Shown here: positions 1-33,999 of the stretch, in pieces
Layout of the letters: every line of letters begins with the position of its first letter
How positions within the stretch are numbered: position 1 is the first letter of the stretch
Notes under the pieces: model-generated
Databases searched by the model: none
Told to the model about the DNA's origin: nothing
The model's input: only the letters and a program-made list of their open reading frames with translations
Assembly: GCA_022925895.1 (NCBI GenBank)
Contig: JAKSYS010000467.1
Coordinates: 1 to 50,470, forward strand
Direction: 5' to 3'
From: Fragilaria crotonensis
Taxonomy: Eukaryota > Bacillariophyta > Fragilariophyceae > Fragilariales > Fragilariaceae
DNA: 50,470 bases
Program-made: the position numbers and the translations under genes

Positions 1-180
1 CCCTAACCCCTTACGCATGATTGTTTCTCGCACGGACGACGGCCAGACGTAAACCCTAACCCCTAACCCCTTACGCATGAAAGTTTTACGCACGGACGAC
101 GGCCAGACGTAAACCCTAACCCCTAACCCCTTACGCATGAAAGTTTCACGCACGGACGACGGCCAGACGAAACTGCAACC
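1..180. repeat. Terminal 60-bp telomere-associated tandem repeat, three copies
   Basis: Three consecutive 60-bp units begin at 1, 61 and 121. Each opens with CCCTAACCCC followed by TTACGCATGA and ends GGCCAGACG. The unit junctions read AAACCCTAACCCCTAACCCC, so telomere-type C-rich words lie on the plus strand, as expected for a left chromosome end. The array continues off the window edge. It is probably the telomere-proximal border of the subtelomere. Confidence 0.85.
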
Positions 181-600
181 GTATCACGTTACAACCGTAC
201 GTCACTATGACAGTACGACAATACAACGATACAACCATTCAACGGTACCACACTATGACGGTATGACAATACAACGATACAACCATTCAACGGTACCACA
301 CTATGACGGTACGACAATACAACGATACAACCATTCAACGGTAACACACTATGACGGTACGACGATACAACGATACAACCATTCAACGGTACCACACTAC
401 GACGGTACAATATTACGACGATACAACTATTCAACGGTACCACACTACGACGGTACGATATTACGACGATACAACCATTCAACGGTACCACACTACGACG
501 GTACGATATTCCGACGATACAACCATTCAACGGTACCACACTACGACGGTACCTCCTTACAACAGTACAACATGACAACAGTAACAGACTACGACGACAA
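181..600. repeat. 48-bp AC-rich minisatellite
   Basis: A unit containing ACAACGATACAACCATTCAA recurs with a 48-bp period (units anchored at 217, 265, 313 and 361) and then degenerates to about 600. The period is a multiple of three, so long open frames appear on both strands. These are repeat artefacts with repetitive predicted peptides and no sign of a real gene. Confidence 0.85.
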
Positions 601-1250
601 TGTGTATAAACGGTATGGCATCACTACAGTGCCGACACCACATCGTCACGACATGACATCGGCCGCATGTCGTCACAACATGTCAACGGTTCGACGACCG
701 CATGTTGTCACAACATGTCAACGGTACGACGACGTCGCAATCGAAACGTGGCAACGTCGCACGTTGCAATCGACGACGTTGCAATCATCGTTCGACGTTG
801 AACGAACGTCAATACGTTTGTACAGTGTGCGATGAATTGTTGTGTGTGTAACGATATTGACACTGTACAAACATGCGTGGAAGTTTACGTAGAAAATTGT
901 TGTGTGTGTGAAGACACCAACACCGTACAAATTTACGTGGATGATTACGTGGAAAATTGTCGTGTGTGTGATGACACCGACGGCGTACGAACCGATACGA
1001 CAATTGTCGTGTGTGTGATGACACCGACGCCGTACGAACCTAAACGACAATTGTCGTGTGTGTGATGACACTGACGCCGTACGAACCTTGTAACTAAATA
1101 CACGTAGAAAATTGTCGTCTAGCATGTGACACGTAAAAGTTTGTCGTATGCGTGATGACAATGACGCAGTGCGAACCTACGTTGAAATATATGTAGAGGA
1201 TTGTCTTTTGTGTTGTGACACGGATGCAAACAAGTACTACCACTTACGTA
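601..1250. repeat. Subtelomeric degenerate repeats (ACGTCGCAACG and GTGTGTGATGAC types)
   Basis: Positions 601-830 are diverged ACGACG/ACATGTCAACGG repeats. From about 836 to 1200 a roughly 50-60-bp unit recurs, built around AATTGTCGTGTGTGTGATGAC and CCGTACGAACC. Similar words recur at 10181-10380 inside the window, which marks that block as subtelomeric too. No gene is supported here. Confidence 0.7.
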
Positions 1251-1766
1251 CGCGTACCAAGTGACGTACGAACGCATGACGTTAATTGTATATAAACGTC
1301 ATCGCAAAACGTCAGTTTTGTTACACGAAATGAATCGTGTTTTTATTTTCAACGCACAGATTTGTCCATGATTCCTTTAATTAAGGAATCTTAGACTTCT
1401 AGTTAAGGCTAATTAAATATAGTGTAGAATATATTAATCCAACCATTCAATTATTTATTACTATTAAATGCAAGTCAATAATAATCTAAGTACCGGCATC
1501 TTTCAACTCCCATCATTGTTAAACATACATTTGCATGACTTGTATACACATGAAACACTTAGCTTTCATGTATGTGTATTGAATGTGGATACTAATTAAT
1601 TTGTTAGCAAATTAAGTCTTACTAAAAATTTATTACTTACAAATATTCTTAACAAGAAAGCACAGGCGCCTGTAACTAAGCATGTTTGGAATCACTTTTT
1701 TGTGTTTTCTCATTAATCCTGCATCGCTTCTGTGTTGCCCTTTAATGTTTGTACTCTTGTAGCGAA
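1251..1766. other. AT-rich stretch without a recognised gene
   Basis: This is AT-rich sequence with no open frame of note. The last bases before the dioxygenase-like gene (GTACTCTTGTAGCGAA just before 1767) are identical in the second copy of that gene at 39590-39605, while sequence further upstream differs. The shared homology starts next to a TTGTAG, so a spliced 5' leader ending there is possible but unproven. Confidence 0.4.
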
Positions 1767-3035
1767 ATGGACGCTGCTCACCATGATGTACCAGGTAGCC
1801 GCAGAGCCGAGACCAATGACTGGGGGGCCATGATTAATGCGACGGCATACATGGTTCCTCCTATCATTGAGAAAATGGACACAGCTAGTCTGGACATCGG
1901 GAATGGTGACAGAGCCCAGATCCACATGAATACACACAGCAAAGACAACTCAGATGATGATGTAAGTGATGACAATCCCAATGCTAAGAAGCGGGGGTTC
2001 CAGCATGTCTACAAGTCAAAGACAAATTCCAGTCACAGAGTGATGGTGGCACATGAAGCATCGACAACAAAAGGTACGCCAAATAGCAAGCTGGGCAAGC
2101 GTAGAGATAATAAAAAGTCAAAGAAAATTGACAGCCTACAGGAGGTGTTGCCATCAAATGTGCACGCAATGGGAAGGTCATTCTTGAGCACACGCCCAGT
2201 GTTTTATAGTGGGACACCCAGGAGAAGTCTTCCAAATGCCATTGACAATGGCATTATGCTTTCAGCAATGGAAGATCTAAAGGTAATCGATACCATTTTT
2301 GGTGCCAGAATGGAGTCTGCTGCTGGTGACACTGTGTTTACCTTGATTCCCCGTCATGATGCAATCCATAAAATGACACATGTGAAAAAAACAATTGCTT
2401 CTTTGTACGCCTTGGACGATGCGAAGCGTGCAGCTGAAGTGCGTGGAAAGACTCGAATCACTGTGGCAGAAGACAATGGCAAGTATGTGACAGTTGGCTT
2501 GAAACCAAACCGAGGCTCTGTGGGTGTTTCTGAGATCTGGCCGCAGAAATTGACCATTGCTGACAGGAACTCAATTAGGAAGTTAATGGCACGTTGTGAG
2601 GAGGCTGCCAAGGGCTACATTCCATCAAATGAACTCCGTGGTCTGCGCATTGCACAAGTTCTTGGTGAGTGGAAGGAGATCAGTGGAGTGTCCTCCAATC
2701 CAATCTGGGGAAGTCTTGCTTGTGGGCGGAACTACTATTTGAATTCCCATGTCGATGAGGACTTTTTTTATTCTTTGACAACCGTTACTTCTGAACATGG
2801 ACTGCAACAAGACATTGACAGATACAGCATGGATGCTGATGTCAGTAACTATTTCACTTTTGCTGAACAAGGAATCGCAGTTGCATTGAGACCAGGTGAC
2901 ATGCTGATTTTCAATCCGCTGTATCACCACTGTTTGTCCTCCCGTACTTCTGCATTTCAAAGCGTGGATGTCTTTTGTTTGTCGTTGTACCTGAAGACGG
3001 CAGTGGTTGGTAAGAACGACAATACTTTGCACTAA
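1767..3035 (+). CDS. 2-oxoglutarate/Fe(II) dioxygenase-like protein, copy 1 (intact)
   Basis: This 422-residue frame starts at the ATG (MDAAHHDVP) conserved with the second copy at 39606. The N-terminal half is polar and Lys-rich, with a likely basic nuclear-type stretch (KLGKRRDNKKSKK). The C-terminal part has the layout of a double-stranded beta-helix dioxygenase. There is an HxD motif at His328-Asp330 (NSHVDEDF), then PGDMLIFNPLYHHC with His387/388, then Arg393, which would fit the 2-oxoglutarate-binding Arg. That residue order is known for Fe(II)/2OG enzymes; the substrate is unknown. It is one of the very few long frames in the window without a frameshift. The paralogue is cut by a transposon before the catalytic domain. 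It could be a host gene or mobile-element cargo. Confidence 0.6.
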   Translation: MDAAHHDVPGSRRAETNDWGAMINATAYMVPPIIEKMDTASLDIGNGDRAQIHMNTHSKDNSDDDVSDDNPNAKKRGFQHVYKSKTNSSHRVMVAHEASTTKGTPNSKLGKRRDNKKSKKIDSLQEVLPSNVHAMGRSFLSTRPVFYSGTPRRSLPNAIDNGIMLSAMEDLKVIDTIFGARMESAAGDTVFTLIPRHDAIHKMTHVKKTIASLYALDDAKRAAEVRGKTRITVAEDNGKYVTVGLKPNRGSVGVSEIWPQKLTIADRNSIRKLMARCEEAAKGYIPSNELRGLRIAQVLGEWKEISGVSSNPIWGSLACGRNYYLNSHVDEDFFYSLTTVTSEHGLQQDIDRYSMDADVSNYFTFAEQGIAVALRPGDMLIFNPLYHHCLSSRTSAFQSVDVFCLSLYLKTAVVGKNDNTLH

Positions 3036-3183: not shown

Positions 3184-6048
3184 CTATGTAGTTCGAAGAA
3201 TTGGAACACAATTAACGCCGGGTGTCGGTAATGCTGTCTCCTGGGAGGTCAAAAACTTACAAAAAGATGCTTCAGAAGTATAAATTTCTTCGATATACGC
3301 CTGAAAGGTACCGGAAACTTTTGCTTGGAGGAAGTTGTGCGAGAGTAATCGTCGCAATCTGCCCTTTACTGGGCAGCTGTTGCTTTCGTGCTTTGGGGCA
3401 CCTGCTGCTCCTTTGAAAACCCAGCACTCACAGCACGCTCGGTTGTTCATGTAATCTTTTTTAAACGGGCAAAGTTTGCGATCATGTGTACTCACACCGC
3501 ATGCGTAGCACATTTTCCATTGGAAGCAAATGTCTTTGTTCTCTGGCAGAGTCTTACTTCCAGTTCCACGTAAGAGTGGTATTCCTCGACATGACGGTTT
3601 TCCACACACAAGACATGCCGTCGTCAATTGTAAGAGAACACGTCGCGCAGCACTTTCGTTCTTTTCAGCATGTCGAATACGGTGAGTGGCCTCAGTTTGG
3701 AGATTTGTCAATGGAATGGTGCGACAGAAAGGACATGCTCCACAGTTGGCAAGCGTTTCTCTCCCAAATGAAGCGGACAAAATCTTGATCGCACAACCCT
3801 TTTGTCCTTGGGATGCATCGAATAACCAGTCGCGAACTGCGCATGATGTCATAACAGCTTTGAAATCACAATGGTCTTGTGGTGTCACAATGTGTTCATT
3901 CAAGAGACGAGTGTATCGATACTCATCATCCCTTACGCGGTGGTCAGAAAGGTTGTCTGGTACAGCAAATAGGACTTGGCCAAACTCTTTTCGCATGCTC
4001 TTCCGTAATCGACCAAACAATTGAACAATCTGCATGGAGTCATACAAATAGCCGACACATACCAAATGTCTGCAGGAGGGATTTTCGTTGCCAACCAAAC
4101 CCATTGTTGTTGAAATGAGAACATCCAACTGTCCTTTGCTCCATTCCGTGGCACTTTGATTAACATCGTCATGAGTGGAGTCAGAGGAAACAAATTTGCA
4201 TTTGAACCTATTGCTCAACTGTTCAAATAGAAGAATCCCATCCCTTTTCTCAGCGACGACAATATGGACAGCTGCAAGTCCCCTTCCAGATTCCAACTTT
4301 GTTTTAACAAAGTGAGCGGCGACATACACATAACGTGAAGAAATTGACACTTTGATTTCAAACCCCTGTGGGAATTTGCCAACCACATGATTCCCAAGGA
4401 TAAGTTTGACGTCGCTGAGGTCATCGGTTCTTGATAAGCCAAGATGCCTTGCAAATCTTTTAACCATAAAAATTGGAAGCGACCCACTCAAGACAACAAT
4501 GGGAATACCCAGACTCGGGAGTTCTGAATAAACCTTGTATTTGTTGTCCCGGAACCTCATTTCAGATAGGATGGTGTGCACTTCGTCAATAACAATTTTA
4601 TCGACAACGTCCACCCAAGACTTGAGAACTTCATAGAACCACATGAACAAATTGCTGATGGCATCGAGGCTCAAAAAGACCAAGCTTGGGAGATTTTCTT
4701 TCTCCCGGAGTTCTTCTGGTAGTGGGCCATCAGAGGTGATGTCCCGCCCCAAAAAAACACAGATGTTTGACTTGAGGGAAAGCTTCTCGAATGCCGTGGA
4801 TGCCATTGCAAACTGATACCCAGCCAAGAAACGATATGGTGAAACATGGATGATTGTCTTTGGTTTTTGGTTCGCAAGGTGGCGAGCAATAGTCGGAATT
4901 ATATACGATTCCGATTTGCCCTCACCTGGTGCTAGTAGAGCAAGACAGTGCTGGGGCTTGTTGTTTAACTCAGTACCATAGCCAAACTCAACCAACTCTT
5001 TCTGCTGCAGCGATAGATAGTGTTCATGGCCATTATTTGGACTAGCAGAAGTTGGATACCGAAGTCGCATTGCAGTGCGTAGGTCTGCCAAGGAAAGGCG
5101 CGTGATGGTGGATTGGGATATTAGATAGGACGTGTCTCCAATAGCACAATGATACGCATTAAAGTGTGCCTCTTCTGAACCAACTTGCTGGCTGGAATAC
5201 GCAATGGCATGTGTCGTTGAAGAATGACCCATTTTTGATGCCCCCATGGCACTCGCTGACAAGAACATGCCAGGTTGATGGCCACCACCGGTCACGAAGT
5301 TAGAAACACCAGCCCAAAAATGCCTTACTTGTGTCATGTTCGGAATCGCAGATAAAGAAAAAATGTCTCGGATGATATGTGATGGTTGAATGACGGAAGC
5401 ATTAATCCTTGTCGGGAATATGAGATTATGATTGTTGTCACTGGTGTTACTGCAGAACATACTGCTTGCTTTCGTTTGGATCAGAGATCGAAACAACAAA
5501 AAGTATCTGGAGATAACTGGGGGTAGCTTGCGCTCAATTTCTTTGCAAGTGCGTCGTGATGCGCTATTGAACCCTTTCAATGAAGAAAGTGTGTAATAGA
5601 CCGTACCATTTGTGTAGAGACAGTGGAACATGGTCGGATCGCGGAGCTCATTCAACCTTGCGGAACCACCACCGAAACCGTGGAAAGACATTTCTAAAAG
5701 TGCCTTCAAATGGTCGAAACAATCCAGAGAGAAAAGTGAACCTTGTTTCCACACGGGACTCACATCTGCTAGAAAAAGGTCACCTGTGTCACAATCAACG
5801 TGGACCTTTATATTGGTCAGAACATCGATTACCGGTTTCCACCAAATTCCCTCTGCTAAGTTTGAAATTGCCACCTTCATCAAATAAACTGTCTTTGGAA
5901 CAATTTGCGACCAGTCATCAAACAGAAAAGAAAACTGATCTATGACAATGTTCCCCCTTTTCATCAAGTGTCGTCTTCCTCCTTTTGGGGAGTCTGCGGT
6001 GCATTTCACGAATTTGGCGGAGCATAGGTGACAGAGAATGGATGACAT
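3184..6048 (-). CDS. E1 main part: tyrosine recombinase-like domain + RecQ-like helicase + zinc knuckles
   Basis: This 954-residue frame continues the zinc-finger protein after two one-base shifts. Residues 120-290 look like a tyrosine recombinase: GSARLNELR (Arg131), SSLKGF (Lys158), MTQVRHFW (Arg242, with Thr in place of the usual His), KMGHSS (His275) and AIAYSS (Tyr284). The His-to-Tyr gap of nine and the Arg-to-Lys gap of 27 match the XerD-type fold. Residues 365-700 form an SF2 helicase: APGEGKS Walker A (373-379), DEVH (488-491), SGS (521-523), and QLFGRLRK motif VI. The Cys-rich tail includes a perfect C-x2-C-x4-H-x4-C knuckle (CYACGVSTHDRKLC) and CCECW...H...C. The helicase part resembles subtelomeric RecQ-type helicases of fungi. 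A joint integration/unwinding role is inferred. Confidence 0.65.
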   Translation of the reverse strand: MSSILCHLCSAKFVKCTADSPKGGRRHLMKRGNIVIDQFSFLFDDWSQIVPKTVYLMKVAISNLAEGIWWKPVIDVLTNIKVHVDCDTGDLFLADVSPVWKQGSLFSLDCFDHLKALLEMSFHGFGGGSARLNELRDPTMFHCLYTNGTVYYTLSSLKGFNSASRRTCKEIERKLPPVISRYFLLFRSLIQTKASSMFCSNTSDNNHNLIFPTRINASVIQPSHIIRDIFSLSAIPNMTQVRHFWAGVSNFVTGGGHQPGMFLSASAMGASKMGHSSTTHAIAYSSQQVGSEEAHFNAYHCAIGDTSYLISQSTITRLSLADLRTAMRLRYPTSASPNNGHEHYLSLQQKELVEFGYGTELNNKPQHCLALLAPGEGKSESYIIPTIARHLANQKPKTIIHVSPYRFLAGYQFAMASTAFEKLSLKSNICVFLGRDITSDGPLPEELREKENLPSLVFLSLDAISNLFMWFYEVLKSWVDVVDKIVIDEVHTILSEMRFRDNKYKVYSELPSLGIPIVVLSGSLPIFMVKRFARHLGLSRTDDLSDVKLILGNHVVGKFPQGFEIKVSISSRYVYVAAHFVKTKLESGRGLAAVHIVVAEKRDGILLFEQLSNRFKCKFVSSDSTHDDVNQSATEWSKGQLDVLISTTMGLVGNENPSCRHLVCVGYLYDSMQIVQLFGRLRKSMRKEFGQVLFAVPDNLSDHRVRDDEYRYTRLLNEHIVTPQDHCDFKAVMTSCAVRDWLFDASQGQKGCAIKILSASFGRETLANCGACPFCRTIPLTNLQTEATHRIRHAEKNESAARRVLLQLTTACLVCGKPSCRGIPLLRGTGSKTLPENKDICFQWKMCYACGVSTHDRKLCPFKKDYMNNRACCECWVFKGAAGAPKHESNSCPVKGRLRRLLSHNFLQAKVSGTFQAYIEEIYTSEASFCKFLTSQETALPTPGVNCVPILRTT

Positions 6049-6179
6049 GCGATTTTCTTACCGCCGTGATGAGAGCAGGACCGTGTAACGTGAACGCGTC
6101 TTCAGAAAACGAACATATAACGGAACAAATACCGGCTTTCAAAACAGATGTTACCTTAGCGATAAGCGAGGAAACAGTG

Positions 6180-7367
6180 TCACACGATATCATTTTGATT
6201 TTGGAATCCTCTTTTTTGGACACGGAATCCAGACATTAAACAGAATTCAACCGCCAATGGATGATGTTGCACTGAAGGTGGTATTTCAAGCATTAAATCC
6301 TTCAGAAAGTATGCAATTGAAAATCCATCTCTCTCGTTGAATTTCTTGTTGACAAACAGACCTCGTCGGAAGGAATATGCTAAAAGCTTTTTGAGTTCAA
6401 TTAGTAATGTAGATGGATCGTGTTGCATGGTGTATGTGCATCGTTGTGACACATCTTCAATTTCACCACCTTCAAATGTTTGCAAAGCAGCCCGAAGATC
6501 ACCAGGTACCATTTTTATGTTCTTCTGGGCATAGTTCAGAAGCCAGACTTCAGCAAGCTGGTGAAGTTTAACCAGGAATACCTCAGTTGATGGATTTGGT
6601 GGTGAATGGATCAAGTTGAAGTCAGTTTTGATTTTTTCAATAAATTGTGTGCCACCGCCACAGCCAAAAATAAGTGGGGTGAACATATGAGTATACGTGT
6701 CGTCCTGTCTTTCCCTTTGAGGTAGTAGTGGCAACAAAGCAGTTCTCGCCTCGCCGTAATCAAATTGTTCCGTGATGCGAGGTGCTTTGTTGAAGAAAGC
6801 TGAGACTTGGGCATGGGAAACGTATCGACCACAGCAGAGTTTGATGAGTTCAACTTCCTGCAGCTGCAACTCATTGCAACCCATATTTTTGCAATGTCGA
6901 AGAGCGTTATCTTTCCTCGGAAAGACGGAACCGCAAGTGCACACATATCCTGTATAAGTTTTTTTGTCACTACGGTACGGCTCTATGGTGCAGGATTCCT
7001 TCGCAACGAGAACTCTTTTAGTAAATTCGTTCAACACAGAACGGACTGTAGACATTCTACTGTCCATGTGATGTTTTAAGGTGATCGCGGATGGATCTCT
7101 CTCCATGTTGATCATGTTGTGAGCATTGCATTGACGGCAGCAAAGGCCGAATGGTGAGAAAGTGAAAAGTTCTCGAATAGGATCAAGGGTCGATCTCTGT
7201 GCTTTGCACCAGAAGACGGACAGAAACAACAGGACTGATAATTCCGTTAACCAGCTTTTGTATTGGAGGAGAGCTTGATGATGGCATGATGGGAATGATG
7301 AGTTTGTTATGGACAAGCCGTGATGTTTGTGTGCCTGTGTAATAAAGTCAGTCGGGAGCCGCGCCAA
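6180..7367 (-). pseudogene. E1 N-terminal part: OrsD-like paired zinc-finger domain
   Basis: This frame carries the family hallmark FTFSPFGLCCRQC (first zinc finger, C-x2-C with downstream His), then GYVCTCGSVF...ALRHC...GC (second finger). A conserved LIKLCCGRYVSHAQV block, THMFTPLIFGCGGG and EIEDVSQRCTYTMQHDPS follow. The finger pair resembles the fungal OrsD/DUF3505 domain, recalled from general knowledge rather than searched. The upstream part of this frame is not conserved. Related copies start with M-x-P-I, and a comparable ATG (MPSSSSPP) lies at 7287 in another frame, so a further shift near 7200 is likely. The C-terminus runs out of frame at an A6 run near 6220. Removing one A restores alignment with E10 (conserved MISCDTVSS). 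It likely binds element or target DNA. Confidence 0.6.
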
Positions 7368-7404
7368 TTTCGATAGTACCGAATTCTACTTGGATCGATC
7401 GTAA

Positions 7405-7508
7405 CTCCCGACGTACAAAATCGAGCTGTCTAACGTAGGAATCATTACTGGGGATCCTCTCGACGTACAAAATGTCCCTCCCGACGTACAAAAATCACTC
7501 CCAACGTA
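7405..7508 (-). repeat. E1 iteron array, word CTCCCGACGTA
   Basis: Direct repeats of CTCCCGACGTA lie at 7405, 7457 (CTCTCGACGTA), 7478 and 7498 (CTCCCAACGTA), with a weak copy (GTCTAACGTA) near 7428. The spacings of 21 and 20 bp match the second halves of the arrays in other copies. The array lies between the element end and the start of its gene, so it could be a recombinase or helicase loading site, an operator, or both. Confidence 0.75.
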
Positions 7509-7566
7509 TCTAATAAAAGTATCCATACCTGAGGATATATAATCTACATAGAAGCTCGCCCCCTTA

Positions 7567-8172
7567 GGGGTAAACATATGTGTGTAGGTGTGGTCGTCTT
7601 TTTCACGGTTTGGTAGGAACGAGATGAGTGCCGCTCTTGCCTCAACGTAATCAAATTGTTTCGTAATGTGAGGTGGCATGGAAAGGGATTCGATTTGACT
7701 CGAAGACACGTATGAACCGCAACACAGCTTAGTGAGATTGACTTGCTGTAGCTTTGTTGGGTCACAGCCACCCTTCTGACAATGCCGAATGGCACTATCC
7801 TTCCTTAATTGAAAAACTTTCCCGCAAGTACATGATACACCCTTGTATGTGACATCATCAACACGATATGGCTCAATTGAGCGATAAGAACGCTTGACTT
7901 CCTCAATTTGTGTTTCGAAGCTTTGCAAAAGGGATTTTGCAGTAGAAATCCCGCTCTCCATTCCATGCTTTTTGAGATGGATTTGAATGCTTCTCAGATT
8001 CAATTGAATCGTTACCGATTTCTTGCATTCGACACCCCAGACCAAATGGCGAGAAGTTGAATGGTCCACAACTGAACGCAAGAGGAGAAACTACTGGAGC
8101 AACACGATCCTGCCATGGGGAAATCTCTGTTGCTGCTTGTCTTTTTTTTGGTGTGGGAGTGATTGGGAACAT
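7567..8172 (-). pseudogene. E2 zinc-finger gene, N-terminal fragment
   Basis: The fragment starts at MFPITPTPKKRQ (8172), the family M-x-P-I start. FNFSPFGLGC then shifts frame within the first finger near 8030. In the new frame it reads IQIHLKKHGM, SCTCGKVF...AIRHCQKGGC, NLTKLCCGSYVSSSQ, and ends at TYTHMFTP, where E1 begins. The visible part equals the E1 N-terminal domain. It is broken both by the frameshift and by the insertion. Confidence 0.65.
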
Positions 8173-8703: not shown

Positions 8704-10180
8704 GGAAGAAAAACAGCTGTCTGGTGCCCGTTTAAAATCTTTGAGAGCCCTTGACAAAGCTCAGCCACCTGCTTTTCACCACAGTACGCCACTAGATGAG
8801 CAATCGACTTGTCTGTCGGAGTCTTCCGATGAAGGCGAATATCGAAATAAGGTAGTGTGTCCACCATTCGAGACCGGAGAAACTGTGTGTACTTGTGACG
8901 TAAGGTCATTGTCGAGTGTTTAAGCAATATGTAACCTGCCACAACAGGAATCCCCGCCTTGGGCGTGACATTAGACTCGTGAATCTTCAGATTGTTCAAT
9001 TTCATTGCCGACTGGACATGAGTCGAGTTCCTCCACGAAATGGGATTCTCGTTGAACGCAAAACGTACGGCGAATACAATCAACTGCTTTGTATGCACCT
9101 TCGTGATCTGGGGTTCCAAATACTCATCAAGATCAGAAACCGTCAACTCATGTACTCTTTTTGGATGGACTAGTTCAGCGCTGTCCCACATGTAGAAACA
9201 TCCATCGGCTTCCATAAAAGTAATGCTCAACATTGCATGGATTTCCGAAAGGAGACGCTGTTTGTTGTCAGCCAGGTCGTTGAACTCCTTCTGCACAAGT
9301 TTCCATTTAAACGAGATGCGATGAGCGCCGTCATTGGTCGTGACTTCATTACTTAGTGTAAAGGCTGATTGTTTAGCATCCGACTCTGAGTTTGATTCTC
9401 CATCTACATCGAAAGTCGTATTTCTCAGTGACGTAGATGCCTCTTCTGGGTCCGATCTTGGAGAATCGCATTTGCTTCCTGTCATTGCCTCAGAGTCCGG
9501 AATACTAAATCTTGTCATTTTATTGGGTAATCCGACTTCCTCCTCTATGATGGGACAGTTTGGCGTGGTCATTGGTGGCATCTTGGCATTGCGTTTGTTT
9601 ACACCTTTCACTGCCTTCCACAAACCTTTGTCCATATGCTTTGCGAAGTAAGCAATAATGTGCGGCCAATTGAAACGCTCTGTGTCCATTTCCAAGGACT
9701 TTGGTGAATGTTCAAGCAGGAAAGGTTGAGAAACTTTGTTTGCCCACGCATAGAGCTTAGGCGAGACGTTAAGTTCTCGATCCACATAAGACTTGTAATT
9801 AAACCATACAAGGCGGTGAAAACACAGTGGGTCAGAGTTACGCTGTCGCCAAATCGTATCGAACTCCTGTCCACTCATCGCCTGGAATCCCAAGGACGTG
9901 AACCGATGCCAACTAGTCGGTGAAACTGCACGGCGATAGCCATCATCATCAGCCTCCCTTTTTCGAGCACTGCTTTCAAATCACTATCGCGTTCGATCAA
10001 AACAGGGTTTGGAACGTAAGCAACTATAGTGAAACTGAACTCAGATGAGGTGATATCCAATGAGATATCGGAAGCGAAGAACGGCAACGGGGCCGTTCCT
10101 TCGGTCATGGTGAACGGTGCGGAGGTACGCAACAACTTCCTACTGTTTCTACGGATGTACGGTCGAAGGACAGAACTCAA
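8704..10180 (-). pseudogene. Unknown gene, interrupted by E2
   Basis: Two frames (10180-9875 and 9893-8704) appear to form one protein split near 9890. It starts MSSVLRPYIRR and contains MMMAIAVQFHRLV, then MSGQEFDTIW and a Ser/Glu-rich acidic linker around 9330-9560. A conserved-looking basic/hydrophobic C-terminal half follows (ELTVSDLDEYLEPQ, GIPVVAGYILLKHSTMTLRH, CGEKQVAELCQGLS). The final residues AVFLP are followed directly by the E2 terminus, so the C-terminus is lost. I do not recognise the family. It may be a mobile-element protein, since it sits between subtelomeric repeats and E2. Confidence 0.4.
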
Positions 10181-10504
10181 TGTAAAAACTCGAAACTAGA
10201 AAATTGTGTGCAATTACGCAATTACGGACAACAGTCAGAACGTACTTGCAAAAAACTAAATTAGAAAATTGTGTTTGTAGTCGTCTTAAATCAACATGTG
10301 TGTGATGGCACTGCTGGCGTACGAACGCACGAATTGAATCTTCTTCGTGTGTGCGACTGTACGGTTGCCGTACAAACGTTTGTGCGAAGTCAAAATAGTG
10401 CAACATTGCGACAGTACAACATTGCAACGGTTCAACACAATAGTGTAACATTGCAACATTACAACATTGCAACGATTCTACATAGCTACAGTCTACAGTA
10501 CAAC
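10181..10504. repeat. Interior subtelomere-like repeat block
   Basis: The first part (to about 10380) has GAAAATTGTGTG, GTGTGTGATGGCACTG and GTACGAACG words like those at 840-1200. The second part has ACAACATTGCAAC repeats, similar in style to the 48-bp minisatellite near the window start. It looks like an older subtelomere segment left in the interior. Confidence 0.55.
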
Positions 10505-10745
10505 ATTACCCCCAACCCTATCAGACTTATGAAGGAATTTCATCACCAACCTTAACCCTATTAATCTTATGAAGGAATTTCAACACCAACCTTAACCCTA
10601 TCAGCCTTATGAATATTTCAACATCAACCTTAACCCTATCAGTCTTATGAAAGAATTTCAACACCAACCCTATCCCTATCAGTCTTATAAAAGAATTTCT
10701 ACACCAACCCTAACCCTATCAGTCTTATGAAAAGAATTTGTTCTT
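10505..10745. repeat. 40-bp tandem repeat with AACCCTATC words
   Basis: About six units begin with AACCCTATCAG near 10514, 10554, 10594, 10631, 10671 and 10711. Each is followed by TCTTATGAAAGAATTTCAACACC-type sequence. The C-rich word is close to a telomere repeat. From 10746 to 11100 I see only AT-rich unique sequence. Confidence 0.75.
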
Positions 10746-11108
10746 GTTTTGCGACCATAGCATTGGATCACTTGAAATTTTGACACTTAGAAAAGCAAAT
10801 TTTAGATGCTTTGTATCCCCTTATTTGTTCTTGACGCCAAAATGTTCTCACCGTACCACTTGGTTATACATACCATTCTTATTCTACAACTGGTCTTATT
10901 AAAAAATCCAGTCCCTATTCAATCGGCATTCAGGAAATTTCAATGTGCTCTACATGTTTTTATATACAGTCCATAATCATGCTCTGGTCTTATTAAAATC
11001 TCAAGTCCAATTATTGACTCTGATAATGCGCTGTCATTCAATTTCAGATTTCATTCCTTGTGTATTCCGGCCATAATATCAAGCATGGTCTTTGACAAAT
11101 CATTCCGT

Positions 11109-11553
11109 CTACCATTTGGTAGCGCTTGATTTGTCAAAGACCGTGCATGGAAACAGTTAACCATGATCTGATACCGGCCACTAGCCCTGCATTCTGTCTT
11201 GTCTACCATTTGGTAGCGTCGGAGTTGCATGAGCCTGCCGAAGACAAATCATTCCGTCTACCATTTGGTAGCGTTTGATTTGTCATCGGAGCTCGGTATG
11301 GGTTAACCGACTTGTCTACCATTTGGTAGCGTCGGAGCTGCATGAGCCTGCCGAAGACGAATCATTCCGCCTACCATTTGGTAGCGTTTGATTTGTTATC
11401 GGAGCTCGGTATGGGTTAACTTTGTAATTGCAAGTGGCCCCTTGCACTGTATTTTGAGTTGTCTACCATTTGGTAGCGTCAGAGTAGCATTGATGGAGAG
11501 GTTGTACTGTAGAAGATTTAATGCTAAGACTGACCTAGCTCACCATTTGGTGG
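11109..11553. repeat. Array of palindrome CTACCA-TT-TGGTAG
   Basis: The perfect inverted repeat CTACCATTTGGTAG occurs at 11109, 11203, 11258, 11316, 11371 and 11463, with a degenerate copy (CACCATTTGGTGG) at 11541. Four of the sites belong to two tandem 113-bp units (11201-11313 and 11314-11426), but the first and last sites lie outside them with different flanks. Such arrays are typical of dimeric protein-binding sites, though the function is unknown. The flanks at 10746-11108 and 11554-11708 contain no recognised gene. Confidence 0.75.
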
Positions 11554-11708
11554 TTAAGTTGCCCGCGGTGTTTATTCTCTCGTCAATGCTCACATAGAAT
11601 TATGTGGGGTTGTTTGAACGTCAGAACGCAAGAATCAACCCTGTTTGAAATGTGAACTGAACAGAACGATACCAAGAAATGTCTCTCAATGTGCCTTCAG
11701 ATTCCTCA

Positions 11709-12081
11709 TCATTGCGTGTCCTGTTTTTGTGTAGCAGTGATTGGAAACATGGACAACACAATCAAAATAGCAGACGACTGTGATGTTTGTTGTGATATCT
11801 TGTTTGTGTTTGTGATATGCTGACGGGGATTGGGAGGTCTGCGACACATTTTGGTGGCTGATCCGCGCCTGCCATGCTGATGATTTGATGACGACAAATA
11901 GGGACCCCTACAGCGGAGCTCTGTACCACCCGATGAAAAGGTTGCGTATCTAATGGTACCACCCAATGCTGAAAAAGACACACCCGATGCAAGTTTTCCC
12001 ATATTAGTATTCCACCCGATGTATCAAGTAAAAAAATACATCCCCGAAGTAATTTTATATAGAAATCGGACCGCCCCCTTA
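11709..12081 (-). mobile_element. E3: truncated element copy (terminus, iterons, leader and start codon only)
   Basis: The terminus GCCCCCTTA ends at 12081. The iteron array and leader are near-identical in layout to E2, and the start MFPITATQKQD lies at 11752. Homology stops within the first dozen codons. The right flank continues the E4 gene, which is cut after MLEIPP, so E3 is inserted in E4. Everything distal to its start codon is missing. Confidence 0.65.
11928..12021 (-). repeat. E3 iteron array, word ACCCGATG
   Basis: Copies are at 11928, 11961 (ACCCAATG), 11982 and 12014, spaced 33, 21 and 32 bp. Between the last copy and the element end lies GTATCAAGTAAA followed by a degenerate right arm (TCCCCGA in place of TACTTGA). 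Confidence 0.75.
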
Positions 12082-13038
12082 GGCGGAATTTCAAGCATCA
12101 ATTCCTTCAAGAAGTATGCAATTGAAAATCCGTCTTGGTGATTGAATTGCTTGTTGGCAAACAGACCTCGTCGGAAGGAATATGCTAAAAGCTTTTTTGA
12201 GGTCAATTAGCAATGTTGATGGATCGTGTTGCATGGTATATGTGCATCGTTGTGACACATCTTCAATTTCGCCACCTTCAAATGTTTGCAATGCTGCACG
12301 TAGATCACCAGGTACCATTTTGATATTCTTTTGAGCATAGTTCAGAAGCCAGACTTCAGCAAGCTGGTGAAGTTTAACCAGGAATACCTCAGATAATGGA
12401 TTTGGCGGTGAATGGATCAAGTTGAAGTCGGTCTTGATTTTTTCAAAGAATTGTCTGCCACCGCCACAGCCAGAAATAAGAGGGGTGAACATATGAGTAT
12501 ACGTATCATCCTGTCTTTCCCTTTGTGGAAGTAGTGGCAACAAAGCAGTTCTTGCCTCGCCGTAATCAAATTGTTCCGTGATGTGAGGTGCTTTGTTGAA
12601 GAAAGCTGAGACTTGGGCATGGGAAACGTATCGACCGCAACAAAGCTTGATGAGCTCTACGTTCTCTAGTTTGGAAGCATCACAACCAGCCTTCTGGCAA
12701 TGTCGAATTGCACTTCCTTTTCTGGAATGAAAGTGCTGACCGCAAGTGCATGAATACCCTGAGTATGTTTTTTTGTTGTCAATACGGTATGGTTCAATGG
12801 TTCCTGATGCCTTTGCAACATCAAGTTGTGCTTTAAACATGTCATGGACTGAACGAACTAAGGCAATACCACTTCTCATACCGTGCTTTTTTAAATGATC
12901 ACGGATGCACCTTTCATCCATCCGAATTGGAACATTGATTTTGCATTCTTGACAGCCAAGTCCAAATGGAGAAAAGGTGAACAGTTCTTGAATCGGTCCA
13001 AAATCCGGCTCTCTCTCTTGGGGTGTGGAAGTAACCAT
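12082..13038 (-). pseudogene. E4 zinc-finger gene, N-terminal fragment
   Basis: From MVTSTPQERE at 13038 this is the longest uninterrupted frame of the zinc-finger domain. It includes FTFSPFGLGCQEC, IRDHLKKHGM, YSCTCGQHF...AIRHCQKAGC, VELIKLCCGRYVSHAQV, YTHMFTPLISGCGGG and the QRCTYTMQHDPS block. From VELIKLCC onward it is almost identical to E1 for about 190 residues. A one-base shift near 12195, in a T6 run, precedes the last segment, which ends at MLEIPP where the E3 terminus starts. The region just after the second finger is more diverged between E1 and E4 than the rest. Confidence 0.65.
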
Positions 13039-13161
13039 AGTTACTAGTGTGATGCTTTGTTGTTTGTATGATTGACGATGTTTGAATGTGATGCGAAGTA
13101 CTTCTACAACACCAGTGCGCGCCAATTGAGATAGTACAGGATCTACGGGATCTTGGCGTAG

Positions 13162-13258
13162 CACCCGACGTACACGTCTCTAAATAAAAAGTGACACACA
13201 ACGTACAAAAATTGACACCCAGCGTACAAATCCTCAGTTAAAAATGACACCCACCGTA
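13162..13258 (-). repeat. E4 iteron array, word CACCCAGCGTA
   Basis: Copies are at 13162 (CACCCGACGTA), 13195 (CACACAACGTA), 13216 (CACCCAGCGTA) and 13248 (CACCCACCGTA). The spacing is 33, 21 and 32 bp, the same as E2 and E3 despite the changed word. TATCAAGTAA follows the last copy. Confidence 0.75.
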
Positions 13259-13316
13259 TCAAGTAATATTATCTATATCTGAAGATATTTTATCTATTTT
13301 TAGGCCCGCCCCCTTA

Positions 13317-14846
13317 GGGGTTGCCATCAAGCTGACGCATGGTGTACTAATTGGGTGGGATGGTCGCGTCATACGGCACTGTACGTCCGTAATGGATCGT
13401 GAGAATCCAGCGAAGCACGTGTACGGTTCGTTTTTTGCGGCGAAGACTTCCGTCGTAGCGTACGGTGCGCGAATGGCTTTTGTGCGTGAGTCGTTGAGAA
13501 GAGTCCGTGCAAAGCAGGACCGAAGACGGGATCGACGAAGAACTGCTACGGGCGAATCTGTGGGAAAGGCATTGACATGTGTTGGTGAGGGTGGTGTAGG
13601 ACTTGGCAATGTTCTTGGTGCCCCAATTCCAAAGAAGAATAAACAGGATGACGTGGCGATGGATCGTTGTTCTGAGGACGAGAGGTCGGTTGATGGTGAG
13701 GAATCTTGGAGTGACTACACTTATGCTAGTGGCGGCAGCGATTCCACTGGCGGTAAGGACGGTGGCTTGATTTTGGAAAGGGATCCGTTTGTTGAACGCG
13801 TGGAAAACGATTTGAAGGAGACGAAGGCTGGTGATGTTGTTGCGATCGGTGGCGAGTTGGCACCTCCTGTTGAGCAGGGTACCGGTCCCTTAACGTATTG
13901 TTTCTCTCGTGAGGTGCCGGTGCCCGGCAGCTGTAATCGCGCGCCAATTGATCTCGTAGAATGCGACGACGGGATCCGCGGTTACGTGGATTGCGTGGCG
14001 CGGTGCCCTGGTGATGTCGTATCTCGTGATACGGGTACGATTTTCGAGGAAAATTCCGATCGACGTGGAAAAATCCGTTCCAGGGAACATCACTCGAGTT
14101 CCGGTGTGGCTGCTGGTTTCATCGGCGGATGTGACGATTATGTTGATGGAGAACGTCAAACAAGCGGGTGGGAATCGCTTCGGAGGTGTCGAAACTTGCG
14201 GTCATGGGAATTTGAGGTGTGTGGAACGCGAAACGCACCTCGTGAACACAGATACGGCGGTCGGCATCCGGATCGGAGCGGTCGCGAGGGTGAGCCTGGC
14301 TATGGTGGCAAGGGCTCGTCGGATAACCACCGGAGTCTTTGCCGCAGTCGTGATCCGGGCTCGTCGGATAACCACTGGAGTCTTTGCCACAGTCGTGATC
14401 CTGGTTCGTGGCATGGTGAACGGAAGCGCCCACGTTCGGGCGTTTGGTGTGATATTGAAGGTGACGGTATGCAGTGTGCGTTGGGTCGAGAAGGTGGTGC
14501 GCCTGATTGGGAGCCTCGTGAACACGGTCGACACTGGGAGCATCGTCGAGGAGGAGACATCATTGACACTCGTCGTGATTGTTGTTTTGGCACTCCCAAA
14601 CGCGAGTCACACCGGCAAGAGGGTCATGGGAGCAACCAGGGGCACCGGGGAAGCGACAGACTGGGGGTACCCCGTGGAGATCGATGGGATGGTGTGCCGC
14701 CGGGTACGACGCATCGTGGTGATTCGTCGTGTAGAGTGTCACGTGCTGCACGCGGATGGTGTCGGACGTGGAATGGTGTGCCTGAAGTTGATCGGCAACC
14801 CGGTGTTTTCGGAAGTGAACACACACAAAAAATGCAGCGATAAGTC
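13317..14846 (+). pseudogene. Accessory protein of a CACTA-type transposon, 5'-truncated by E4
   Basis: Right after the E4 terminus the plus frame reads VAIKLTHGV, IGWDGRVIRHCTSV and later HVYGSFFAAKT. This matches MAVKLGHGV, ISWDGRVVRHCTSV and HLYGTFTAAKE of the accessory gene in the transposon at 40447-50468. The rest, to about 14843, is a Gly/Ser/Arg-rich low-complexity tail (repeated SSDNH..SLC.SRDPGS). Two overlapping frames are open here; the longer one (from 13392) continues the conserved segment. Only the C-terminal part of the protein survives, so another transposon of that family once lay here. Confidence 0.55.
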
Positions 14847-14931
14847 GTGAAAATCATAAAACGAATTATTGTAATGCTGCTTGGAGTTTTAAGTCAAGGG
14901 GAGTCAAGTGCGTAGACAGAATGACACAAAA

Positions 14932-14997
14932 CATCTACCGATGCGAATGACATGAAGCATCTATCAATGCGAATGAAACGAAACATCTACCGATGCG
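14932..14997 (-). repeat. E5 left-end iterons, word CATCTACCGATGCG
   Basis: Copies are at 14932, 14958 (CATCTATCAATGCG) and 14984, with 26-bp spacing. The stop codon of the E5 gene lies in the rightmost copy. The core CTACCGATGC resembles the E10 word CTCCCGATGC and the first E5 right-end iteron CTCCCAATGC. Confidence 0.65.
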
Positions 14998-15577
14998 TTG
15001 GTGTTTTTAGTGCTGTCTCCCGGGAGGTCAAGAACCGACAGAAAGATTCCCGGGAGGTGTAAATTTGTTCAATATATGATTGGAAGGTTCCCGTTGACTT
15101 AGAGCGTACGAAGTCATGTGAAAGCAACCGGCGCAATCGGCCTTTCACGGGGCAGCTGCTGATCTCGTGCTTTGCGGCACCTTCAGCACCTTTCATAACC
15201 CAGCACTCGCAACAGGCTCTGTTATTGATGTAATCCTTTTTAAAGGGGCAAAGCTTGCGATCATGTGTACCCACACCACACGCGTAGCACATTTTCCATT
15301 GAAAACAAACATGTTTATTTTCAGGCAAAGACTTACTTCCAGTTCCCTTGAGGAGAGGTATCCCCTCGACATGCTGGGTCGCCCTATGCTTTTTCAGGTG
15401 ACGACGAATGTATTTCTCATCAAACTCGAGTGTTGTAGACTTTATACATAGAAGACAGCCTAAGCCAAATGGTGAGAAGGTGAAACATTTTCGAATCGAC
15501 ACTGGATTAGTTGAAGATGGAAGATCTTCAAGAACATATTGCACCTTTCGTTTCTTTGTTAGAGTGATCGGAGGCAT
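14987..15577 (-). CDS. E5 fusion protein: zinc finger 1 joined to C-terminal zinc knuckles
   Basis: This 196-residue intact frame starts at MPPITLTKKRK (family M-x-P-I start). Residues about 30-70 are CFTFSPFGLGCLLC and YIRRHLKKH. From about residue 75 (IPLLKGTGSKSLPENK) it equals the E1 C-terminus: CYACGVGTHDRKLC (C-x2-C-x4-H-x4-C), RACCECW, and GRLRRLLSHDF. Roughly 1,250 residues of the full protein are missing at a clean in-frame junction. The frame is open from start to stop, unlike most relatives, so it may be expressed. It could compete for binding sites or help mobilise E5 with the full protein supplied elsewhere. That role is inferred. Confidence 0.65.
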   Translation of the reverse strand: MPPITLTKKRKVQYVLEDLPSSTNPVSIRKCFTFSPFGLGCLLCIKSTTLEFDEKYIRRHLKKHRATQHVEGIPLLKGTGSKSLPENKHVCFQWKMCYACGVGTHDRKLCPFKKDYINNRACCECWVMKGAEGAAKHEISSCPVKGRLRRLLSHDFVRSKSTGTFQSYIEQIYTSRESFCRFLTSRETALKTPTHR

Positions 15578-15667
15578 GACAAAGGTATTTTATGTGGTGA
15601 TGTATTCCGAGAGGAAAGAGCCAAAGGGCTGTTTCAACAGTACTGAAACCCACGGGGGATCTCTGTA

Positions 15668-15760
15668 GCTCCCAATGCACATTTCACTAATTGAACAGGC
15701 AGCTCCGGAGGTTCAAAATTGGCTCCGGAGATCAAATCTCTAAATAAAATTGCTCCGGAG
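15668..15760 (-). repeat. E5 right-end iteron array, word GCTCCGGAG with one foreign-type first copy
   Basis: GCTCCGGAG lies at 15702, 15722 and 15752. In the first array position (15668) lies GCTCCCAATGCA, identical to the first iteron of E10 (36386). The spacing is 34, 20 and 30 bp. TCAAGTA-N10-TACCTGA follows. Confidence 0.7.
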
Positions 15761-15835
15761 GCCTCAAGTAAAAATATATGTACCTGAGGATTTTTTATCT
15801 ACTTTGAACCCCTTTTCCTTAGGAGTACTCGCATG

Positions 15836-15851
15836 ATACAATACTGTACTA
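15836..15851. repeat. LINE target-site duplication, left
   Basis: ATACAATACTGTACTA here is repeated exactly at 21269-21284, flanking the LINE. Confidence 0.8.
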
Positions 15852-15879
15852 GGCAGGAGGGGTTCTTCAGGTAATCCGC

Positions 15880-16633
15880 GGCGATATCACGACAACTGTA
15901 TTCGGTTCTCCCATCGTTGATCCCTCTGGTCTCGGTCGATGGTGTGGGTTTACCATTAACGGATCTGGGGGACAAAAAATGTAGCATAATCACTGGGTAC
16001 CGCACCTGCTCGAGCTCGATAACAACAGCACCTCTCGGAAGCACGTTTCATCGGGAATACGAGTATTTCCAAGCGCAAGGATTCCGTCAACCGCAACCCA
16101 GGACTCAATTCGTGGATGACCTATCCTCGACAATCCGGTTACTCAGAGAGGAAAACCATGCACTCGTGGTTATGATGGATGCTAATGCCGTCTTCTCCAA
16201 AGACACCAAGTTGAGCGATATGCTTCGGTCCCACGATCTCGTAGATCTTCACAAATCCCATCCAGCTCCATCTACATACATTGGTTCAGCACACAGAAGA
16301 ATCGATTACATCTTCGGATGTCCTAGAACTGAAGCGGCAATGAGTAGACAGGGTACCCTCTCATACTTTGAGGGTCCACAATCAGATCACAGAGCCTTAT
16401 ATGTAGATTTAAATTTATCCCATCTGTTCGGATCAATGCCAGAGGACCGTCTTCCTAGCCTTCAACGCCGGGCACTCAGGAGCGGAAATCCAGAGCTGAT
16501 CACACTGTACACCAGGACGATCAAACAATATTATGCAGATCATCGGATGCAAGACAGGATCGACGATTTGTTCAAAACATTCCAGCCTGACGCGAACTCA
16601 AGTGCGACGTCTACTTATTGCGTGGGACGATGA
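15880..16633 (+). pseudogene. LINE endonuclease domain, 5'-truncated (EEP/APE-like)
   Basis: Homology starts around 15880 (GDITTTVFGSP) and shifts frame near 15960 into the frame 15917-16633. Visible motifs are VVMMDANAVF (the catalytic xGDxNxxP-like region), SAHRRIDYIFG and the terminal QSDHRALYVDL with the invariant SDH. The N-terminal third of the endonuclease, including its first metal-binding Asn/Glu motifs, is lost, so it cannot be active. A shift near 16600 moves the protein into the next frame. Confidence 0.7.
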
Positions 16634-17276
16634 CCAAGGAAGAGCTATGGAACATGCGGAAAGTGTTCTACGAACGCAACCAAAAATGTATAAATGGTCT
16701 CCTCGTTTGCGGAATGCCGGCGTCCTGTTACGTTACTGGAAATTGCGACTCCGCGAACTCACACATGTTGAGGATTATTCTGCGACATTCGCAAGGTGGG
16801 AGCGAAAGATTCAACAATTCGATTCATCGTTTGCACTGCCGCATAGAACCCAAGAGTTGTCAATCGACGAAGTTCGATCCCATCTCAACCAAGCCAACAG
16901 GACCCTTCGGAAGACTCAACGGGAAGCAACGGCTCTACACAATTTAAGCTACGAAGAGTTACTGGATTCATACGAATCTGACATGAATCCCAACACGCAA
17001 GCCGAATCTCAACGTAAAGCCGTAATTGTCAGACGAACAATGGCCGGAGAGAACAGTCGCCAGTTATATGGCAAAATAAGACAGATCGTGAAACCCAGCG
17101 AGGTATCCGCACTGCAACAATTGCTTGTACCAAGACACGTTGACACGACAACAGCCACGGTGCCAGGTCAAGTCCACAATATCCTGAAGTTTACAGCTCC
17201 TGAAAATCTGATATGGGATACAGTGATCACGCGAGAGGACATTGAAGACCATCTCCTTCAATCGAGACGCCTTTAG
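16533..17276 (+). pseudogene. LINE inter-domain linker
   Basis: This 247-residue frame links endonuclease and RT. It is rich in Arg/Gln, with probable helical stretches (LRKTQREATALHNLSYEELLDSY) and no catalytic motif. It overlaps the RT frame at 17242, where a one-base shift must lie. It is the thumb/linker region usual between the domains in LINE ORF2 proteins. Confidence 0.55.
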
Positions 17277-18708
17277 AGCTGCAGCAGAATCGCCTTGTGG
17301 GCATGGGTTGATACATGACGCCTTAACGTTCTCAAGTCTATCACCGGAGGCAGAGTCATTGCTTGCAGGCGAAATTCCACCAGAATGGCACGGCGACCGA
17401 TATCTCCTGCGTGAGTTTCTAGCATCCTTTCAGATACCAGGTTCAGTACTAGAGGGAGATCCGATTCCAATGACTATCACAGCGGACGACATCGTTAAAG
17501 GATTTAAATCCTGGAAGGAAACGACTACGACGTCACCGTCTGGACGTCATCTCGGGCATTATAAAGCACTGATACAGGATCCAATACTCTTGGACTGCCT
17601 CCGCAAGTTTCTTAACATCGCAATCTCCCGAGGCATAGCCATACCACGATGGTGCAAGGCGGTGAATGTGATGATCGAAAAAGACAAAGGGAGCCCCAAA
17701 ATCAATCGTCTCCGCATTATCCATTTGTTTGAGGCCGACTACAATCTGTTTCTAAAAATTATGTGGGGGTCTCGTTTAGTTCGCCGGTCAGTACAACTTA
17801 GCTTACTCAACGACGGACAACACGGCTCGGTGCCAGGACGAACAACAATGGACCCAGTTATGTTGAATCAACTCACTACCGATCTATGTCGACTCCTGAA
17901 GGTAAACTACGTCCGGTTTGATAATGATGCCTCAGCATGTTTCGATCGCATCATCGTGGCGTTGGGAATGTTGGCTGCGCGCCGTTGTGGTATGCCCAAC
18001 GAAGCCGTCCGAACACACGCTAAATCCCTGGAGCTGATGCAATATATGGTGAAAACGGTATACGGTGTTTCAAATACGTCATACAAAGGGACCACTCTGG
18101 AACCATTGTTTGGCACTGGGCAGGGTAGCGGCGCATCTCCAGCGGTATGGTTGTCCTTAGTAGTAGTTCTCCTGAACACACTAGAGAAGGTCGTTCCAGA
18201 TCGTATCAGTTTTCGATCGGTTGACGGTACTATCACTCACCAACGCCTCGTGGACGCTTTCGTGGATGACACAGCTATCGGCATCACTGATGATGGTACC
18301 AAGACGTTCCGAGAATTAGTTCAAGCGTTGGAAAATGCTGCTCAGACATGGGAACAACTACTGCATTTTTCAGGAGGTGCCTTGAACTTAAAGAAATGTT
18401 CGTGGTATGCACTCTACTGGGATTGGCGACAAGGACGACCACAGCTCAGAGAACTTTCAGATGAAGACCCAACAATCAAACTTTATCAGGGCTCGTCGGA
18501 TACAGATTCCACCGTTCAAATCGACCGGCAAGGCATACACACATCAGCTCGGATCCTTGGAGTTCACCAAACTCCGACAGGCGACTTCTCGCACCATCTC
18601 CACGTACTGAAATCCAAAGCGGACCAATATGCTGGCTATATTCGGTCGCCCCGATTATCGCCATCGGACATCCGTGTTTTCACCGAACGATATACGCTCC
18701 GGCTATGA
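17242..18708 (+). pseudogene. LINE reverse transcriptase domain
   Basis: This 488-residue frame carries the RT motifs in order: SGRHLGHYKAL, RLRIIHLFEADYN, QHGSVPGRTTMDP, VRFDNDASACFDRI (motif A, catalytic Asp), GTGQGSGASPAVW (motif B) and DAFVDDTAIG (motif C, FVDD). This is a complete RT core. The FVDD and GTGQGS forms are common in LINE-like elements of protists. The frame is lost near 18700, shortly after the thumb region, so the copy is probably inactive even though the RT core is intact. Confidence 0.8.
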
Positions 18709-21151: not shown

Positions 21152-21163
21152 GGTTAGGGTTAG
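21148..21163 (+). repeat. TTAGGG-type array in the LINE 3' end
   Basis: TTAGGGTTAGGGTTAG at the ORF stop is two and a half perfect hexamers. About 105 bp of 3' UTR follow before the target duplication, including CTAACCCTATAATTAG. Confidence 0.85.
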
Positions 21164-33998: not shown

Positions 33999-33999
33999 A

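What the first reader, a model, noticed from the sequence alone, without database searches (positions are those of the whole stretch)
3184..7566. A tyrosine recombinase fused to a RecQ-like helicase, with OrsD-like zinc fingers and zinc knuckles: candidate undescribed mobile element
The E1 frame 6048-3184 contains, before the helicase, GSARLNELR, SSLKGF, MTQVRHFW, KMGHSS and AIAYSS. Counting residues gives Arg131, Lys158, Arg242, His275 and Tyr284. XerD has Arg148, Lys172, Arg247, His270 and Tyr279, so Arg-Lys and His-Tyr distances (27 vs 24, and 9 vs 9) fit closely. All of these are conserved in the diverged E10 copy, including an odd Thr where HxxR has His. The helicase (APGEGKS, DEVH, QLFGRLRK) and a C-x2-C-x4-H-x4-C tail follow. 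A recombinase plus helicase in one protein, in an element present in at least ten terminal copies, would be a distinct class. Subtelomeric RecQ-type helicase genes are known in fungi; I do not know of this architecture being described as an element with defined ends.
Basis: partly seen in the sequence, partly recalled or inferred. Interest (0 to 1): 0.93.

Follow-up and report, generated by a model that had tools for sequence, protein, structure and literature searches.

The report
Telomere-directed recombinase-helicase mobile element
At the chromosome ends of a diatom sits a repeated DNA element whose main protein joins a DNA-cutting tyrosine recombinase to a RecQ helicase; copies have one exact end, point at the telomere, and appear to replace the chromosome tip beyond their joining point, which looks like a so far undescribed way for DNA to spread over chromosome ends.

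The parts
7562..7568 (-). 5' terminus of the distal element (CCTAAGG on the minus strand), joined to a truncated older copy
   Evidence: C508 holds the uninterrupted sequence TTTACC|CCTCTCATATC, 97.1% identical to the flank over 663 nt
7406..7508 (-). Four iterons (TACGTCGGGA-like) at offsets 60, 80, 101 and 153 from the terminus
3184..7367 (-). YR-RecQ helicase gene, over three frames in this copy (shifts near 6215 and 5951-5988)
6180..7223 (-). N-terminal part with C2H2-type Cys/His motifs (by eye), presumed DNA binding
   Evidence: tblastn to P0006 27-364, ending near 6213; consensus; no OrsD hit
5044..5931 (-). Tyrosine recombinase catalytic region (residues 40-335 of P0001; R131 E134 K158 R242 H275 Y284)
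4006..4953 (-). RecQ-like SF2 helicase core (residues 366-681)
1767..3035 (+). Convergent second gene P0003, HxD...H dioxygenase-like (invariant H334, D336, R381, H394)
   Evidence: convergent neighbour of 15 of 21 YR-helicase copies that reach the C-terminal region
180..1750 (.). Subtelomeric sequence (TAS) distal to gene 2, shared in whole or part with the ends of C578, C551, C269, C754, C490 and C413
1..180 (.). 60-base repeats with CCCTAA units at the contig end
   Evidence: long runs of CCCTAA/CCCCTAA begin C754 and C490
7569..8705 (-). Older copy, 5' part only (terminus 8705), cut at TTTACC|CCT by the 7568 terminus
8706..12083 (-). Unit with terminus 12083 (iterons GCATCGGGTG); carries ORF P0005 (8646-9893), which runs into the 8705 junction, and telomere-like repeats at 10497-10731
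12084..13318 (-). 5' part of a copy (terminus 13318; relative residues 42-343)
13319..15823 (-). Internally deleted copy (terminus 15823; relative residues 42-80 then 1242-1366) followed by an opposite-strand 483-aa ORF
   Evidence: ORF without Pfam hit
15824..22674 (-). Truncated unit (terminus 22674; relative residues 45-169), with a plus-strand reverse transcriptase gene
22675..23621 (-). Truncated unit (terminus 23621; relative residues 37-78)
23622..34072 (-). Unit with terminus 34072; much of it GC-rich with unidentified ORFs
34073..36541 (-). Diverged YR-helicase copy (terminus 36541), cut at relative residue 755; the R242 position is a stop

Best explanation
It is a DNA-based mobile element of diatom chromosome ends with a single functional end. 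The unit runs from the terminus CCTAAGG, past iterons and a YR-RecQ helicase gene and a convergent dioxygenase-like gene, into subtelomeric sequence and the telomere. SHOWN: the YR-helicase fusion (YR by conserved residues and predicted fold), the shared 5' terminus, CC(T) at the target, the common orientation toward chromosome ends, and one worked case in which the sequence beyond the target is lost. INFERRED: the zinc fingers bind the family-specific iterons; the YR cuts at the CC|TAAGG terminus and at a CC(T) in another chromosome end and exchanges strands there; because everything distal of the site up to the telomere goes with it, one crossover is enough and the recipient's tip is replaced. 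The RecQ-like helicase may make the step replicative by unwinding the donor toward its telomere, similar in logic to the Rep-helicase of Helitrons. Repeated rounds give head-to-tail arrays of 5' parts, each cut by the next terminus.
Confidence: 0.62

Rival explanations
1. A passive subtelomeric gene family: chromosome ends break and are repaired by break-induced replication or end joining from other ends, and the YR-helicase genes ride along, as assumed for Y' elements and fungal telomere-linked helicases.
For: P0003 with adjacent TAS is 92.7-94.7% identical across ends whose YR-helicases are only 48-54% identical in protein, so homologous exchange does act here.
Against: It does not predict the same exact terminus behind 53 distinct flanks, CC(T) at the joint or phased iterons beside the terminus.
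Confidence: 0.15
2. A linear extrachromosomal element with a telomere at one end and a CCTAAGG end at the other is joined to broken chromosome ends by microhomology end joining (AGG-3' on CCT); the YR only makes or resolves the linear form, as protelomerases do.
Against: The same CCT in a 14-nt remnant recurs seven times, which fits recognition better than chance breaks, unless these are copies of fewer events; no linear form seen.
Confidence: 0.15
3. A conventional two-ended YR transposon (Crypton-like) whose 3' end was not recognised; distal target parts were lost later by erosion.
For: YR DNA transposons are known, and only one nested pair was followed to the far side.
Against: Besides E1, six copies in the window keep the 5' part of the helicase gene; five lack its 3' end and the sixth is internally deleted. 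The 600 nt beyond the 7568-junction target are absent. Orientation is uniform.
Confidence: 0.06
4. A telomeric retroelement adding itself by reverse transcription.
For: Head-to-tail truncated arrays at telomeres resemble Terminons and similar elements.
Against: No reverse transcriptase match in the YR-helicase or P0003 proteins; it is the coding-strand 5' end that is fixed and the 3' side that is lost, the reverse of target-primed reverse transcription.
Confidence: 0.02

Closest known systems
Fungal subtelomeric / telomere-linked RecQ helicases (TLH; Ustilago, Magnaporthe, Agaricus)
   Same: Subtelomeric, multi-copy, RecQ-like helicase genes with truncated copies (passages of PMC7473861, PMC4522978, PMC12857005)
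   Different: [quoted passage not shown] no YR, fixed terminus or CC(T) target in the passages seen. A hidden YR there is possible and untested.
Cryptons and other YR DNA transposons
   Same: DNA element with a YR as presumed integration enzyme
   Different: Fused RecQ helicase, one end found, telomere-directed; no Pfam YR-type hit
Terminons and telomeric retrotransposons (bdelloids, Fusarium FoTeRs, Drosophila HTT)
   Same: Elements at chromosome ends, for Terminons in long head-to-tail truncated arrays (passages of PMC6431247 and PMC12857005; abstract listing of PMC4481407)
   Different: They are retroelements; here no reverse transcriptase in the unit's two genes, 5' end fixed, 3' side lost
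Helitrons
   Same: One large protein combining a DNA nuclease with a helicase (RepHel, passage of PMC6431247; its catalytic tyrosines are recalled)
   Different: Rep nuclease; helicase class and AT target recalled; here a YR, a RecQ-like helicase and a CC(T) target
Yeast Y' elements
   Same: Telomere-localised unit with a helicase gene (passage of PMC4522978)
   Different: No recombinase known to me; spread by homologous recombination (recalled)

Membership tests
Tyrosine recombinase superfamily | Catalytic Arg-I, Lys, Arg-II, His/Trp and Tyr in order | tested here: met
   Invariant in 32 of 32. Arg, Arg, His and Tyr in register with eight known YRs under a greedy setting; Lys158 is assigned by its place at the end of a strand in the model, not by that alignment
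Tyrosine recombinase superfamily | His (or Lys) of HxxR box II | tested here: not met
   T/R/V/I at this position in all 32 rows (alignment)
Tyrosine recombinase superfamily | YR/topoisomerase IB catalytic fold | tested here: met
   [not shown]
RecQ-like SF2 helicases | Helicase core with RecQ as nearest fold | tested here: met
   leading hits RecQ, BLM, RECQL5, WRN
OrsD family (Pfam) | Match to the curated profile | tested here: inconclusive
   No hit at E<=10 for seven relatives or E<=1 for E1's frames; HMMER filters drop weak matches
Crypton | Two-ended insertion with a short repeat at both ends (recalled definition) | tested here: inconclusive
   Only one end found; a second end is not excluded everywhere
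Fungal telomere-linked helicases | Subtelomeric RecQ-like helicase gene family | tested here: met
Fungal telomere-linked helicases | Sequence homology to a fungal TLH outside the helicase core | not testable with these tools
   No collection here offered a named fungal TLH; no hit bears a fungal name, but most hits are unnamed
Telomeric retroelements (Terminons and others) | Element-encoded reverse transcriptase | tested here: not met
   None matched in the YR-helicase protein or P0003; the reverse transcriptase at 17242-18708 is on the other strand, in one unit of this window
2OG-Fe(II) / Tet-like dioxygenases (gene 2) | HxD...H iron ligands plus family profile | tested here: inconclusive
   H334, D336, H394 and R381 invariant in 25 rows; one of 25 touches 2OG-FeII_Oxy_6 (Tet-like) at E 0.13; no PDB match

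The most novel reading that the evidence does not exclude
A new class of DNA element: a one-ended, self-spreading chromosome end. A YR fused to a RecQ helicase recombines its CC|TAAGG site with CC(T) in other chromosome ends, swapping or copying everything out to the telomere, so that the telomere itself serves as the second end; fungal telomere-linked helicases may be unrecognised members.
Probability: 0.45. Interest if true: 0.95.

Novelty: categorically new. Interest (0 to 1): 0.87.

Why it matters
The telomere-targeted elements in the papers seen here are retroelements, and subtelomeric RecQ helicase genes have been known in fungi since 1998 (reference in PMC7473861) without a settled role. 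A YR-helicase protein with a fixed terminus and a CC(T) target would give such genes a mechanism (site-directed replacement of chromosome tips), would help explain fast turnover of chromosome ends, and is directly testable.

Tried and rejected
OrsD homology: no Pfam match. YR by library: no hit in Pfam, PHROGs or NCBIfam. hhalign against single XerD, Cre and lambda Int gave nothing, as did two unrelated control proteins. Against a profile of eight YRs, P 0.024: the default run aligned 36 columns (His-Tyr box), -mact 0.05 aligned 192 columns with both Arg boxes and the His-Tyr box in register but not the lysine, and a global run gave nothing. PDB sequence search: the single protein found nothing, the alignment only helicases, P0003 nothing. 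Viral contigs: 106 stretches matched a word pattern, none confirmed. A first junction count gave no intact sites, apparently because BLAST did not accept my gap scores; only its tally of the base before the terminus is used, and one search is the valid count. Of 53 junctions (distinct in their last 50 nt; a few differ by one or two bases only), 30 had no intact homologue at the thresholds (>=85% identity, >=45 nt, reaching within 2 nt) and are not in the target count. Of the four exceptions to CC, one (L048) compares with another copy of the same junction, one (L031) has an ambiguous C run, one (L042) differs near the join, and one (L060) reads GCTAAG; all four stay in the 23. The junction regex asks for CCTAAGG, so it finds exact termini only; the target letters do not depend on it. 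A break of TAS at window position 1128 in C271 looks like a Copia-like insertion, not an element end (by eye).
Full report
WHERE IT IS. The window is the left end of contig C411 of a 62.1-Mb, 881-contig genome. The genome gives 61 light-harvesting-protein matches. The window opens with 60-base repeats containing CCCTAA units.

ONE PROTEIN, BROKEN IN E1. Full-length relatives are single frames of about 1,280-1,370 aa with Cys/His motifs, then YR, then helicase, then a Cys-rich tail. E1 matches the same relative in three frames: 7223-6213, 6217-5951 and 5988-3223. Whether these are assembly errors or decay is unknown; matches without internal stops exist on C783, C84 and C578.

SECOND GENE. P0003 (1767-3035, +) converges on the helicase gene. 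H334, D336, R381 and H394 are invariant in 25 aligned rows, the pattern of an iron dioxygenase; one of 25 touches the Tet-like Pfam family at E 0.13. Of 21 YR-helicase copies whose match reaches residue 828 or beyond, 15 have a P0003-like gene in convergent orientation within 1 kb (coordinates; both lists are lower bounds). The P0003 family is wider than the element: 102 matches, many on contigs without a YR-helicase hit.

ONE EXACT END. On the minus strand the unit starts CCTAAGGGGGCG. The same terminus stands behind 53 distinct flanks in the loci held (a few of these differ by one or two bases only). About 60 to 150 bases inside lie 3-4 copies of a family-specific iteron at similar offsets: TACGTCGGGA at 60, 80, 101 and 153 (terminus 7568); GCATCGGGTG at 61, 93, 114 and 147 (12083); TCTCCGGAGC at 62, 92 and 112 (15823); TACGTCCGGA at 60, 80, 101 and 134 (22674); CATCAGGAGC at 62, 93 and 113 (36541). 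The count isolated such a set at these five of the nine window termini and not at 8705, 13318, 23621 and 34072.

THE TARGET IS CC(T). For 23 of 53 junctions an uninterrupted homologue is held (>=85% identity, >=45 nt). It reads CC exactly at the join in 19 and CCT in 13. CC at 23 nearby offsets (-12 to -3 and +3 to +15) averages 4.5%; binomial P is about 2e-22. Over the 53 flanks the preceding base is C in 30. The 14-nt remnant CCTAAGGAGAAGGC directly followed by CCTAAGG occurs seven times, at five sites on four contigs, twice as a tandem pair, with 0 for the reversed pattern; the uninterrupted form CCTAAGGAGAAGGCCCTGTTT occurs five times. Repeated use of the same CCT points to recognition rather than random breakage, unless some of these sites are copies of one event.

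DIRECTION. Three terminus searches (lower bounds) give 72 distinct termini on 27 contigs. All 16 contigs with two or more (61 termini) are uniform in orientation. C23, C490, C592 and C754 carry telomere repeats at the left end and C411 its CCCTAA-bearing 60-base repeats; all five have minus-strand elements. C578, C551 and C269 have TAS at the right end and plus-strand elements; C413 has TAS at the left end and minus-strand elements. That is nine of nine pointing outward. C427 also holds one telomere-repeat match (contig length not seen) and shows no element.

NO SECOND END FOUND. In the window the nine termini cut the array into units; no shared 3' boundary stood out in the self-comparison, and the last unit runs through P0003 and TAS to the telomere-like repeats. 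Besides E1, six copies keep the 5' part of the helicase gene; five lack its 3' end, and the sixth is internally deleted. At the 7568 junction, contig C508 is 97.1% identical to the flank over 663 nt and then continues into the gene; its next 600 nt match the window only at 77% or less, in other copies. So that older copy was truncated, not split. I followed this by sequence for one junction only.

MIXED EVIDENCE. P0003 with adjacent TAS is 92.7-94.7% identical at the DNA level between E1 and C578, C592 and C551, while their YR-helicases are 54, 48 and 51% identical in protein. Homologous exchange between chromosome ends therefore also acts, and TAS need not have travelled with the gene.

MECHANISM. 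A recombinase with one recognised site at the border of a chromosome end needs a single crossover with CC(T) on another end to exchange everything out to the telomere; the helicase could turn this into copying. This accounts for the fixed 5' end, the CC(T), the missing 3' end, the orientation and the nested 5' fragments. The chemistry, the direction of copying and the iteron-finger pairing are inferences. End joining of a linear form gives a similar picture and, with passive repair from other ends, is the main rival.

KNOWN WORK. Ten full-text searches listed no paper whose title or abstract start describes a YR-RecQ fusion or a one-ended telomeric DNA element (one search listed 20 of 102); subscription journals and preprints were not searched. 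[quoted passage not shown] PMC4522978 and PMC12857005 describe subtelomeric helicases; PMC6431247 describes Terminons and Helitrons; PMC12477816, PMC12636532 and PMC11960938 held nothing of the kind in the passages seen. Only passages were read, no paper in full.

Noticed in passing
window 15917-21151 (+): A reverse transcriptase gene (RVT_1, E 1.4e-7 for 17242-18708) with neighbouring frames, probably a non-LTR retrotransposon inserted in a truncated copy.
   Followed up: partly
window 24968-25885 and 36540-36903: Inverted and direct repeats: 25510-25885 matches 36903-36540 at 86%, so the flank of the 36541 terminus exists uninterrupted at 25.5 kb; 24968-25182 is repeated at 25509-25723.
   Followed up: partly
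window 13392-14843 (+): A 483-aa frame without Pfam hit takes the place of P0003 behind the deleted copy; junctions in C551 and C84 lie in related sequence, so it may be an alternative second gene.
   Followed up: partly
window 8646-9893 (-): ORF P0005 (415 aa, no Pfam hit over its cut-off) lies in a unit that has a terminus but no YR-helicase match: possible non-autonomous unit with cargo.
   Followed up: no
window 11094-11490: Short tandem repeats around TCTACCATTTGGTAGC; purpose unknown.
   Followed up: no
L073 (around C271:5887 and C271:6333-7173): What looks by eye like a Copia-type retrotransposon end inserted in the subtelomeric repeat at the position equal to window 1128, and a separate 0.8-kb insert further in.
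   Followed up: partly
C551, C578, C592 (L074, L070, L080): Mosaic chromosome ends: P0003-TAS 92.7-94.7% identical in DNA behind strongly diverged YR-helicase genes, with homology starting at the end of the P0003 gene.
   Followed up: partly
P0136: A P0003 relative is listed as a Comamonadaceae MAG protein; perhaps algal contamination in that bin.
   Followed up: no
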